From NCBI GenBank assembly GCA_031272775.1, contig JAISTB010000035.1, positions 1 through 43,691 on the forward strand: DNA of 43,691 nucleotides. Direction: 5' to 3'. The stretch comes from Fusobacteriaceae bacterium. Lineage in GTDB: Bacteria > Fusobacteriota > Fusobacteriia > Fusobacteriales > Fusobacteriaceae. Made by a program: the position numbers and the translations under genes. The first letter of the stretch is position 1, and each line of letters begins with the position of its first letter. Shown here piece after piece: positions 33,015 through 36,018 of the stretch. The notes under the pieces were generated by a model, which saw only the letters and a program-made list of their open reading frames with translations, had not been told where the DNA came from and did not search any database.

Positions 33015-33033
33015 GTTGGCGCTAAACGCCAAC
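33015..33033. promoter_or_regulatory. Perfect inverted repeat upstream of the ncRNA promoter
   Basis: GTTGGCG (33015-33021), CTAAA, CGCCAAC (33027-33033). No T-run follows on either strand, so it is more likely an operator or a stem than a terminator. It lies 38 bases before the -35 at 33072. Confidence 0.4.
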
Positions 33034-33071: not shown

Positions 33072-33100
33072 TTGCTTTTATCTAAGAAATATGCTATAAA
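33072..33100 (+). promoter_or_regulatory. Promoter of the candidate non-coding RNA
   Basis: TTGCTT (33072-33077), 17-base spacer, TATAAA (33095-33100) with TG one base upstream. Nothing protein-coding starts soon after it. Confidence 0.75.
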
Positions 33101-33450
33101 ATGAGTAGGAACATTTTTTGTTCTGAAATTACTACTTCTAAACGATGGTATACTAGATAAGCAGGGAATGAAGCCGTTTTAACAGGTCAAAAAACAAGCG
33201 AAAAAGCATCAAAATGTCTTGCAGAAATGTGACAAAAGTTTTTTGGACAGCTTGTTCTACGCGGATCATTCAAAAACCGTACACAGTTGACGCCAAGCGG
33301 AGTAAGCTTGTAGGATTTCGGTCAAGTCGGGGAGAGCGGTAGGAAAGTATTGTAAGTCATGTAGTTGTATGACGGACCGGAATGTATTGAGCGCTTTGCG
33401 TCGGAAACACGCCTATTCGGTAATCACTGCCAAGAGGGGGGCAAGGGATT

Positions 33451-33486
33451 ATGAAAGACAAAAGAAAATGTGTGAAAACGGAATAA
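33451..33486 (+). CDS. Possible 11-residue basic peptide inside the ncRNA
   Basis: ATG at 33451 is preceded by GAGGGGGGCAAGGG and opens a frame reading MKDKRKCVKTE before TAA at 33484. It is too short to judge by composition; the ribosome site is the only support. Confidence 0.2.
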   Translation: MKDKRKCVKTE

Positions 33487-33571
33487 TGGACGCGTAACGC
33501 AGCAACCAAAAGCCATGAATTCGAAAATAAGTTAAATTTAAACATAATCGGACCAGCCAACCGATGAGAAT

Positions 33572-33598
33572 AAACCGGGACCAGCCATCCCGGTTTTT
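33572..33598 (+). terminator. Terminator of the candidate ncRNA
   Basis: AAACCGGGA (33572-33580), loop CCAGCCA, TCCCGGTTT (33588-33596), T-run to 33598. The loop is complementary to TTGGCTGG (33601-33608) just past the T-run, so a read-through transcript could form a competing stem. Confidence 0.85.
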
Positions 33599-33623
33599 CT
33601 TTGGCTGGATTTTCAACATTTTA

Positions 33624-33651
33624 TTTACTTTTTTGATAAATGTGGTAAAAT
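33624..33651 (+). promoter_or_regulatory. Promoter of the MORN-repeat gene
   Basis: TTTACT (33624-33629), 16-base spacer, TAAAAT (33646-33651), 52 bases before the start codon. Confidence 0.65.
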
Positions 33652-33702
33652 AGAGTCAAGAGAAAACGTACGTCACAAATTGATTCCGAAAAGGTGGTCA
33701 AG

Positions 33703-36018
33703 ATGAATTTTTTCAAAAATATCGGTCCGAGACGGATCATTCAGATCCTATCCGCCCTTGTGGCGCTCTATGCCCTTGTCCGGATCATTCTGCAGGCGGC
33801 CTCGGGCAAGGCCGGCGAGCAGGCCGGAAACGGCGTCGACGCCGACAGACTCTTCGGGCGAAAACCCGCGGCCCATCCGGAAAAACCGAGATCCCAGGCC
33901 CCGAGAGCCCCCAGGGAAGCGTTAGCCGCAAAAGTCAAGGAAATTCCCGAACAAAAACCGGAAGTAAAGCCCGAGGCGCAAGCGGAGCCGATACCCGAGG
34001 TCAAGGCGGAACCGGCGCCCGAAGTCAAGGCTGAAGAGAAGCCGGAGGCCGCGCCCGAAGTCAAAGCGGAAATCCCGACGATAGCGCCTGAAGTCAAGGC
34101 TGAAGCGGAAGCGGCGGCAGCGCCGGAAGCGGTTCCCGAGGTCAAGGCGGAAGAGCCCCCGGAGACAGAACCCGAAATCAAGATCGAAGAAAAGATCGAA
34201 GAAAAGATCGAAGAAAAAACCGAAGAGATTTCGGCCGCCGAAGAAGAGACGGTCCCCGAGATCAAGATCGAAGAGCGGGCGGAAGAGCAGGAAGTCGTGT
34301 TTGAGGAAAAGCGGGAGGAACCCGCGGCTCCGGCCGCGAAGGCCGCTGAGCCGGTCGCTGCCATCGCGCAAAAGCCCGCGCCCCTTGCCATAGAGGAAAA
34401 GACCACGACCCTGGCCCTCGAGGAAAAAAAGCCGCAGGCGCCCGGCCCCTTCGAGGGGACGGCCCCCGGCGTCATCGTCAACGGCAAAAAGCAGGGCTAT
34501 TTCAAGCTCTATTTTGAGGACGACCCAAGCGAAGTCAAGGCCGAGGGCTTTTTTGAGGACGATATGCGCCAGGGGCTCTGGCGGCAGTACAACCCCGACG
34601 GTTCGCTCTATATCGAGTGTACTTACGACAAAAACGTCGTGCAGGGGGACTTCCGGGTCTACTACAAGAACGGCAGCGTCCGTGAGGAAGGCCCCGTGGC
34701 CGACAATCTCAAAGTCGGGCATTGGCGGCGCTATTATCTGAACGGCGGCCTGCGCTATGAGGAAAATTATCAAAACGGCTTCCTGACCGGAGAATGGCGC
34801 GGCTTTTACGAAGACGGGGCCGTCATGGTCGAGGGCCTCTACGAGCACAACCGCAAGACGGGGCTCTGGCGCGGCCACTACAGCAACGGCCAGCTCATGT
34901 ACGAGCAATACTATGAAAATGGCGTCAAATCAGGCGGAGGCACTTATTTTATCCACGAGATCGAAACGACCATCAAGGAAGTCCTCAATTACCAGCACGG
35001 CAAGCGCAGCGGCGGCGTGATCTTCTTCAACCAGAACGCGGCCGACGGCGGTTTTGCCCGCTCGGCGGTCTCCTTTACGGGAGAGCGCAAATACCGCTAC
35101 TTTGAGGAAATTCTCAAGAATAACGCCATGGAGGTCGCGCCTCAGGTCGAGACCTATTCCTATACCAACGGCATGCTGGGCGAAAAGGGAACGATCATCG
35201 CCGCCGACGGCCTCAAGGAAAATTTCAGCTATGAAAATGGCGTCGTCAGCGGACCCGCCGTGGTCTGGCTCGCCGACGGGGAAAAGGAGACCCTGCGCTA
35301 CGAAAAGGGCCTCAAGGAAGGAGAGGCGGTCTTTTACGGAAAAGACGGGCAGGAGATGCATTTCCGCTACCAGAAGGGCGTGAAATCGGGCCCGGCCTTG
35401 ATCAAATTCCCCAACGGCGACATGCAGGAATTTACCTATGTGTCGGGGACCATTACGGGCCCCTCCAAGTATTCCTTCGTAAACGGGGACATGGAGACCT
35501 TTGCCTTTGAGAAGGGCAAGAAAGACGGCCCCAGCGAATATGTCTTCAAAAACGGGAACAAGCAGCTGGCCACGTACACGGCGGGCGTCAAGAACGGGCC
35601 CGGCGCGCTTTTGCTGACCAACGGCGAAAAGGAGGAATTCCGCTTCAAGGACGACGTCAAGAACGGCCCGGGGAAATATTACTGCGCCGACGGCAGCCGC
35701 GAGGAATTCCACTATGTGAACGGCGTCAAAAACGGCCCCGCGGTCTTTTATTTCGGCAAAGGGGGCCGTCAGGAATATACTTATGTGAACGGCGTCCGTC
35801 AAGGGAAGGCCGTCAATTACTACGACAACGGCGAGCGCATCCTGTTCCAGTACAAGGACGGCTTCGCGGGCCCCGACATCGTGCGGGAACTCCCGACGGG
35901 GGAAAAGATCAGCGGGACCTTGAAAAACGGGAAAATGGAAGGCCGCGCCCTCAAGGAAAACCCCGACGGCTCGGCCGAAGAGCTCTGGTATGAAAACGGG
36001 CAGGTCCTCAGTCGATGA
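33703..36018 (+). CDS. Membrane-anchored MORN-repeat protein with PEVK-like linker
   Basis: A 771-residue protein. One transmembrane helix near the N-terminus (about 11-31, ILSALVALYALVRIILQAA) is followed by about 200 residues of low-complexity Pro/Glu/Val/Lys/Ala sequence with repeated PEVKAE and EEKIEEKIEE units. From about residue 260 to the end are some 20 MORN_2-type repeats of the pattern YxNGxxxGxxxxYxxDG, which should form a long beta-ladder. So the domain is probably held outside the inner membrane on an extended stalk. MORN_2 proteins in bacteria are mostly uncharacterised. ATG at 33703 has AAAAGGTGG upstream; a GTG at 33694 is less likely. The 3' end overlaps the convergent gene by 11 bases. 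Confidence 0.85.
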   Translation: MNFFKNIGPRRIIQILSALVALYALVRIILQAASGKAGEQAGNGVDADRLFGRKPAAHPEKPRSQAPRAPREALAAKVKEIPEQKPEVKPEAQAEPIPEVKAEPAPEVKAEEKPEAAPEVKAEIPTIAPEVKAEAEAAAAPEAVPEVKAEEPPETEPEIKIEEKIEEKIEEKTEEISAAEEETVPEIKIEERAEEQEVVFEEKREEPAAPAAKAAEPVAAIAQKPAPLAIEEKTTTLALEEKKPQAPGPFEGTAPGVIVNGKKQGYFKLYFEDDPSEVKAEGFFEDDMRQGLWRQYNPDGSLYIECTYDKNVVQGDFRVYYKNGSVREEGPVADNLKVGHWRRYYLNGGLRYEENYQNGFLTGEWRGFYEDGAVMVEGLYEHNRKTGLWRGHYSNGQLMYEQYYENGVKSGGGTYFIHEIETTIKEVLNYQHGKRSGGVIFFNQNAADGGFARSAVSFTGERKYRYFEEILKNNAMEVAPQVETYSYTNGMLGEKGTIIAADGLKENFSYENGVVSGPAVVWLADGEKETLRYEKGLKEGEAVFYGKDGQEMHFRYQKGVKSGPALIKFPNGDMQEFTYVSGTITGPSKYSFVNGDMETFAFEKGKKDGPSEYVFKNGNKQLATYTAGVKNGPGALLLTNGEKEEFRFKDDVKNGPGKYYCADGSREEFHYVNGVKNGPAVFYFGKGGRQEYTYVNGVRQGKAVNYYDNGERILFQYKDGFAGPDIVRELPTGEKISGTLKNGKMEGRALKENPDGSAEELWYENGQVLSR

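What the first reader, a model, noticed from the sequence alone, without database searches (positions are those of the whole stretch)
33072..33608. Unrecognised ~490-nt structured RNA with twin ACCAGCCA loops
Seen: a promoter, an AT-richer non-coding stretch with long-range complementary segments, and an intrinsic terminator. The last two hairpins display nearly the same loop (GGACCAGCCA at 33550-33559 and 33578-33587). Directly behind the terminator T-run lies TTGGCTGG, the exact complement of CCAGCCAA, so loop-loop contact or an alternative stem is possible. It does not look like tmRNA, RNase P RNA, SRP or 6S RNA. Inference: a large non-coding RNA, or a leader that controls the MORN gene by terminator read-through.
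Basis: partly seen in the sequence, partly recalled or inferred. Interest (0 to 1): 0.75.

Follow-up and report, generated by a model that had tools for sequence, protein, structure and literature searches.

The report
Twin-loop RNA matching a second RNA
This stretch of a Fusobacteriaceae genome looks like the gene of an undescribed, roughly 490-letter RNA whose two end hairpins carry loops complementary to the loops of a second undescribed RNA elsewhere in the same genome, which suggests, but does not prove, that the two RNAs grip each other.

Summary
Window 33107-33602 has a conserved promoter, a conserved 5' block (33108-33168), a fast-evolving middle and two 3' hairpins with AGCCA loops, the second a terminator. 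Among 98 Fusobacteriota genomes it was found in the three of the window's genus only, once each, and it matches no Rfam family. The hairpin stems change in compensating pairs; the loops do not. The middle is not significantly folded (z 0.10). Synteny and a separate promoter-like site speak against a MORN leader. The TTGGCTGG behind the terminator is not conserved.

New here: the same three genomes carry a second, unlinked ~250-nt RNA (RNA2) with five strongly predicted hairpins, whose first three loops read UGGC[U/A]. In every genome RNA1's loops match RNA2 loops over 7-9 bases (column-permutation p 0.0001 to 0.005). One genome also holds a possible RNA1-like third RNA.

Best reading: RNA1 is a trans-acting RNA that binds RNA2 by loop-loop pairing, as a sponge or switch. 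The gene is well supported (about 0.9); the partner is moderately supported (about 0.5); there are no expression data and only three genomes.

The parts
33072..33100 (+). Promoter of RNA1: -35 TTGCTT (33072-33077), 17-nt spacer, TGc-extended -10 TATAAA (33095-33100); start inferred near 33107
   Evidence: Sequence; core letters CTTGC...TATAA invariant in 3 of 3 genomes; not listed by the consensus scan
33108..33124 (+). 5' hairpin GGAAC-atttttt-GTTCT of RNA1
   Evidence: Present in all three genomes; stem letters hardly vary, so no covariation evidence
33147..33168 (+). Most conserved 5' element GGWATACTAGATAAGCAGGGAA
   Evidence: Identical but for one W in 3 of 3 genus genomes; next best of 61 family genomes has 3 mismatches
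33169..33546 (+). Variable middle of RNA1, G/T-richer first, then A-rich and T-poor towards the 3' end
   Evidence: Hardly alignable between the three genomes; composition table; not significantly folded
33547..33565 (+). RNA1 hairpin H1, loop ACCAGCCAA (33552-33560)
   Evidence: Compensatory stem changes, invariant AGCCA; AGCCAAC complementary to RNA2 H3 loop GUUGGCU
33572..33602 (+). RNA1 hairpin H2, loop CCAGCCA (33581-33587), and T-run: intrinsic terminator
   Evidence: AGCCAUC complementary to RNA2 H1/H2 GGUGGCU
33601..33608 (+). TTGGCTGG behind the terminator, judged chance
   Evidence: Absent from both relatives
33624..33651 (+). Separate promoter-like site in front of the MORN gene
   Evidence: 9 of 12 consensus letters, TG before the -10
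33694..36018 (+). MORN-repeat protein gene, neighbour, not part of the RNA
   Evidence: ortholog on the RNA1 contig of G002 with another gene between

Best explanation
RNA1 (window about 33107-33602) is an independently transcribed, trans-acting non-coding RNA of one Fusobacteriaceae genus. Its twin 3' hairpins show AGCCA loops that kiss the UGGCU loops of a second, unlinked RNA of the same genomes (RNA2, five hairpins): H1 with RNA2 H3, H2 with RNA2 H1/H2. RNA2 also carries AGCUA loops (H4, H5), which can reach its own UGGCU loops through a weaker G.U pair. RNA1's all Watson-Crick AGCCA could therefore displace them, making RNA1 a sponge or switch of RNA2. Shown by calculation: the gene, its conserved ends, RNA2, the complementarity. 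Inferred: transcription, binding, direction of control, and what RNA2 regulates.
For: RNA1 in 3 of 3 genus genomes: BLAST; R2 model 90.7-93.3 bits, next best 22.7 among 98 genomes; R1 model 83-89 bits, next best outside the genus 36.6. Stem covariation with fixed loops. RNA2 in the same 3 genomes: 96-151 bits; folds with z -3.76, -4.48 and -5.18, 0 of 200 shuffles as stable in each; 8 of 34 pairs changed on both sides, 100% of cells paired, 0 of 500 shuffles as high. Loop complementarity of 7 bases or more in every genome, p 0.0001 / 0.00065 / 0.0052 under three column-permutation nulls. Most RNA2 loops are predicted open. In G001, RNA1 H1 and RNA2 H3 have both drifted, and H1 there fits RNA2 H1/H2 instead.
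Against: No transcript or binding data. Three genomes only. RNA2 was found because its terminator loop resembles RNA1's, so the two discoveries are not wholly independent. In an unconstrained antisense comparison the loop pairings are not the top runs (7th in the window genome, 5th and 8th in G001, 2nd, 4th and 5th in G002). RNA1 H1's motif is only 0.56-0.80 unpaired when the full RNA is folded. Simple clusters of motif hairpins are not rare: control motif sets gave 19 and 3 clusters against 10.
Confidence: 0.5

Rival explanations
1. RNA1 and RNA2 both present hairpins to one RNA-binding protein that reads loops of the type YYAGCYA (and perhaps UGGCU); RNA1 titrates that protein, as CsrB does CsrA.
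For: All AGC[C/U]A loops of RNA1, RNA2 and RNA3 fit YYAGCYA; repeated identical loops are typical of protein-binding RNAs (general knowledge).
Against: CsrA is absent from all 3 genus genomes. A protein does not explain why the UGGCU loops are exact complements, nor the flank complementarity.
Confidence: 0.2
2. RNA1 is a base-pairing sRNA whose loops are seeds for mRNAs; the match to RNA2 is incidental or RNA2 only shares targets.
For: Loop-displayed seeds are known in Fusobacterium (FoxJ, passages of PMC11005410).
Against: Complements of the loops are not over-represented in 400 kb of the genome (several rarer than reversed controls); the letter after AGCCA varies A/U/C; no target prediction was possible.
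Confidence: 0.2
3. RNA1 is a leader that controls the MORN gene by terminator read-through.
For: Adjacency and same strand in the window.
Against: Opposite-strand gene between them in G002; no MORN gene behind RNA1 in G001; own promoter-like site for MORN in the window; strong conserved terminator.
Confidence: 0.04
4. RNA1 is a divergent member of a known class (6S, tmRNA, RNase P, SRP, ROOL, OLE, raiA and the like).
For: Length; no 6S hit in the genus.
Against: No Rfam match, even at E up to 10, in any of these classes; tmRNA and RNase P RNA lie elsewhere in the same genome; no stable global fold.
Confidence: 0.02

Closest known systems
SprY-RNAIII and RsaI-RsaG of Staphylococcus aureus (RNA-RNA sponges; passages of PMC9266662)
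   Same: Two separately encoded trans-acting RNAs that meet by base pairing, one titrating the other
   Different: No sequence relation tested or seen; here the contact would be between repeated hairpin loops; binding is not shown here
FoxI/FoxJ sRNAs of Fusobacterium nucleatum (passages of PMC11005410)
   Same: Fusobacterial trans-acting RNAs; FoxJ's seed sits in a hairpin loop; the species lacks Hfq and ProQ
   Different: Poly-C seeds against mRNAs; no RNA1 or RNA2 in the phylum's other 95 genomes searched
CsrB/RsmZ-type protein sponges (recalled)
   Same: Repeated hairpins with one loop motif, independent terminator
   Different: Motif is not GGA in all members; no CsrA gene in the genus
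ROOL, GOLLD, OLE (passages of PMC12286853)
   Same: Long bacterial RNAs in which kissing loops, some palindromic, join molecules
   Different: No Rfam match; RNA1 shows no comparable global fold; RNA2 is short

Membership tests
RNA sponge pair (sRNA against sRNA) | Two independently encoded RNAs with conserved complementary accessible stretches | tested here: met
   three genomes, permutation p 0.0001-0.0052
RNA sponge pair (sRNA against sRNA) | Direct binding and change of the partner's activity in cells | not testable with these tools
   Needs expression and binding experiments
CsrB/RsmZ | CsrA/RsmA protein in the genome | tested here: not met
   PF02599 in 0 of 3 genus genomes, 4 of 61 family genomes
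CsrB/RsmZ | Many GGA motifs in loops | tested here: not met
   GGA 15 against 9.5 expected in the window RNA (p 0.016), 14 against 13.6 in G001, 12 against 8.7 in G002; absent from the G002 twin hairpins
Any Rfam 15 family, large ornate RNAs included | Covariance-model match at the gathering score | tested here: not met
   0 matches in the window; lenient matches are weak and of unrelated kinds; RNA1/RNA2 loci of the relatives give only one tRNA outside the RNAs
6S RNA | RF00013 match | tested here: not met
   0 of 3 genus genomes at E <= 0.001; not in the window
tmRNA / RNase P RNA | Being the genome's copy of that RNA | tested here: not met
   G000 has them on other contigs, C15 and C20
MORN-gene leader | Conserved adjacency to the same downstream gene | tested here: not met
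   Broken in G001 and G002

The most novel reading that the evidence does not exclude
RNA1, RNA2 and RNA3 are parts of one RNA-built assembly: palindromic UAGCUA loops (RNA2 H4, H5) join RNA2 molecules to each other, and AGCCA loops (RNA1, RNA3) dock on UGGCU loops (RNA2 H1-H3), giving a hetero-oligomeric RNA complex held by kissing loops, with RNA1's long 5' part as its variable cargo or tether.
Probability: 0.1. Interest if true: 0.85.

Novelty: new variant of a known kind. Interest (0 to 1): 0.52.

Why it matters
Few regulatory RNAs of fusobacteria are described (my knowledge), and the model species lacks the common chaperones Hfq and ProQ (PMC11005410, passages). A pair of lineage-specific RNAs with mutually complementary, conserved loops would be a natural case of RNA-RNA control by loop contact, and one that can be tested with two short transcripts in vitro. 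It would also show a terminator hairpin doubling as a recognition element.

Tried and rejected
Rejected: MORN leader; downstream TTGGCTGG as partner; CsrA sponge; housekeeping RNA; coding function (the 5' block has no reading frame shared by the three genomes, read by eye; the ATG near 33144 is not in G002).

Led nowhere: exact 17-mer in genome contigs gave 9 stretches, of which 2 are RNA1 (L023, L028) and 7 lack the flanking features; 6 viral contigs, none; plasmids and phages by blastn, no match for RNA1 or RNA2; the 22-mer with 3 mismatches hit 11 further family genomes (13 places), and none shows the rest of the RNA; an RNA2 17-mer hit 25 viral contigs, none with RNA2 (best 19.3 bits, a coding-looking stretch). 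The AGCCA-type loop is not a general terminator loop of this genome: 0 terminator-like hairpins for CAGCCA and for TAGCCA and 1 for TAGCTA (RNA2 itself) in 400 kb, with shuffled-letter controls averaging 0.35 and 0.65. RNA3's neighbour gene is absent from the other two genomes. Duplex energies were uninformative because terminator stems pair with each other. Antisense of the 5' element to tmRNA and RNase P RNA: nothing beyond 10 pairs with G.U. An R1 search at E up to 10 in the genus gave no further member.

Literature: no description of these RNAs was seen in the listings; only open-licence papers are held.

Full report
What is there. The finding is at window 33072-33608. The -35 (33072-33077) and TGc-extended -10 (33095-33100) put the start near 33107; hairpin H2 plus T-run ends the RNA near 33602. 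The consensus scan did not list the promoter (its -35 matches 3 of 6 letters), but its core letters are invariant in three genomes. I call the RNA RNA1.

Relatives. BLAST with the region finds 3 of 61 genomes, all of the window's genus: G000 (own), G001 and G002. The two relatives are JAISST010000002.1 and JAITPM010000010.1, both titled 'Fusobacteriaceae bacterium' MAG. A sequence-only model of the promoter and 5' block (R2) scores 93.3, 93.3 and 90.7 bits in these three and at most 22.7 bits in all other listed matches among 98 Fusobacteriota genomes. A model of the twin hairpins (R1) scores 89.0, 88.3 and 83.2 bits there; 48 of 98 genomes have some match at E <= 0.1, but outside the genus the best is 36.6 bits, and the alignments inspected are ordinary terminators without the loop. 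RNA1 is therefore restricted, as far as held genomes go, to one genus, once per genome.

Anatomy. Conserved: a 5' hairpin with a U-rich loop, the element GGWATACTAGATAAGCAGGGAA (33147-33168), and the last ~60 nt. Total length is about 490, 773 and 482 nt; the middle is hardly alignable and A-rich towards its end. The global fold is no better than shuffles: z 0.10 (58 of 100 as stable), -0.56 (4 of 20) and -1.91 (5 of 100). So 'structured ~490-nt RNA' is right only for the ends. In H1 and H2, 5 of 14 pairs are changed on both sides between genomes, 97.6% of cells pair, and 6 of 500 column shuffles reach these values. The loops read ACCAGCCAA and CCAGCCA (window), ACCAGCCAT and CCAGCCA (G001), CCTAGCCAA and TTAGCCA (G002): AGCCA is invariant in 6 of 6.

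Neighbours. In the window the order is amt (+), aspA (-), RNA1 (+), MORN gene (+). In G001 amt and RNA1 are adjacent and same-strand, and an ATPase-like gene, not MORN, follows. In G002 a gamma-glutamyltranspeptidase-like gene on the other strand lies between RNA1 and the MORN gene; the names of the ATPase-like and transpeptidase-like genes are my reading of the translations. The shared order amt-RNA1-MORN looks ancestral, with later insertions, and RNA1 kept its own promoter and terminator. The MORN gene has a separate promoter-like site in the window. The leader reading is not supported.

A second RNA. Two further R1 matches inside the genus (G002:C8 40.6 bits, G000:C38 33.9 bits) led to RNA2. 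It lies beside a DUF1275 gene (Pfam PF06912 in G000) and, in G002, a 4HBT_2 thioesterase-like gene. A model of its last three hairpins (R3) finds it in G000, G002 and G001 at 151.4, 146.7 and 96.1 bits; of the other 95 of 98 genomes one has a match at E 0.005 (G055, 30 bits), a plain terminator on reading. The G002 RNA1 terminator itself matches R3 at 27.6 bits. RNA2 folds far better than shuffles: z -3.76, -4.48, -5.18, with 0 of 200 in each case. On the model-fitted alignment 8 of 34 pairs are changed on both sides, 100% of cells pair and 0 of 500 shuffles reach this; that alignment leans to the structure. Loops: H1 UGGCU in 3 of 3; H2 UGGCU, UGGCU, UGGCA and H3 UGGCU, UGGCA, UGGCU (G000, G001, G002); H4 AUUAGCUAC in 3 of 3; H5, the terminator, AUUAGCUAC, CCCAGCUAA, AUUAGCUAC. 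No Rfam match at the gathering score.

Complementarity. UGGCU is the exact complement of AGCCA. With flanks: RNA1 H1 AGCCAAC / RNA2 H3 GUUGGCU (7, window genome) and UAGCCAACU / AGUUGGCUA (9, G002); RNA1 H2 AGCCA[U/C]C / RNA2 H1 GGUGGCU (7 or 8 in 3 of 3, with G-C and G.U exchange). In G001 both H1 (AGCCAU) and RNA2 H3 (UGGCA) differ, and H1 there fits RNA2 H1 and H2 over 8. Permuting the columns of the RNA1 loop windows, which keeps conservation and composition, gives p 0.0001 (all columns), 0.00065 (loop columns only) and 0.0052 (same permutation for both hairpins) from 20,000 permutations each. RNA2's own H4/H5 can also reach H1-H3, in most pairings through a G.U pair, which suggests an internal lock that RNA1 could open; this is inference. 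Against: in a whole-RNA antisense comparison these pairings rank 7th (window genome), 5th and 8th (G001), and 2nd, 4th and 5th (G002) by score, and RNA1 H1's AGCCA is only partly open when the full RNA is folded (0.80, 0.56, 0.60; H2 0.99-1.0).

A third RNA. G002:C91:1-430, cut by the contig end, ends in two hairpins with AUUAGCCAA loops after an A-rich repeat stretch, like RNA1's 3' part. Its neighbour gene is not in G000 or G001; no ortholog was found.

Specificity. The loop motif is not a house style of terminators: in 400 kb of G000 only RNA2 has such a terminator loop. Clusters of motif hairpins as such are no evidence, since control motif sets also give them.

Comparison. No Rfam family; CsrA absent in the genus; tmRNA and RNase P RNA found elsewhere in the genome (both also found in G002, while in G001 no match passed the tmRNA cut-off and none was found for RNase P, probably missing contigs); 6S not found by its model. 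It works most like known sRNA sponges (SprY-RNAIII, RsaI-RsaG; passages of PMC9266662), without being shown to be one.

Confidence. Independent conserved RNA gene: about 0.9. Pairing with RNA2 as main function: about 0.5. Sponge or switch direction: open.

Noticed in passing
L143:826-1077 (-) = G000:C38 about 14.32-14.58 kb; L168:1390-1628 (+) = G001:C96; L142:782-1028 (+) = G002:C8: RNA2: a strongly predicted five-hairpin RNA with UGGC[U/A] loops (H1-H3) and AUUAGCUAC-type loops (H4, H5), beside a DUF1275 gene in G000; not in Rfam, only in this genus among 98 phylum genomes.
   Followed up: yes
L145:1-430 (G002:C91, contig start): Possible third RNA: A-rich repeats followed by two hairpins with AUUAGCCAA loops and a terminator; only seen in G002 and cut by the contig end.
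   Followed up: partly
L023:1747-2524 (-), middle of the G001 RNA1: G[C/T]AGG occurs 9 times against 0.74 expected in shuffles (3 against 0.78 in the window RNA, 1 in G002), echoing the conserved GCAGGGAA of the 5' block; a tandem GAAACATGAAAAA-like repeat lies in its A-rich part.
   Followed up: partly
window 33015-33033: Perfect 7-bp inverted repeat GTTGGCG-CTAAA-CGCCAAC just upstream of the RNA1 promoter, possibly an operator or the terminator of a minus-strand transcript; not tested for conservation.
   Followed up: no
whole genomes G000-G002: The MORN-repeat protein has 11, 11 and 23 matches in the three genus genomes, and matches occur in 37 of 61 family genomes: an expanded family in this group.
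   Followed up: no
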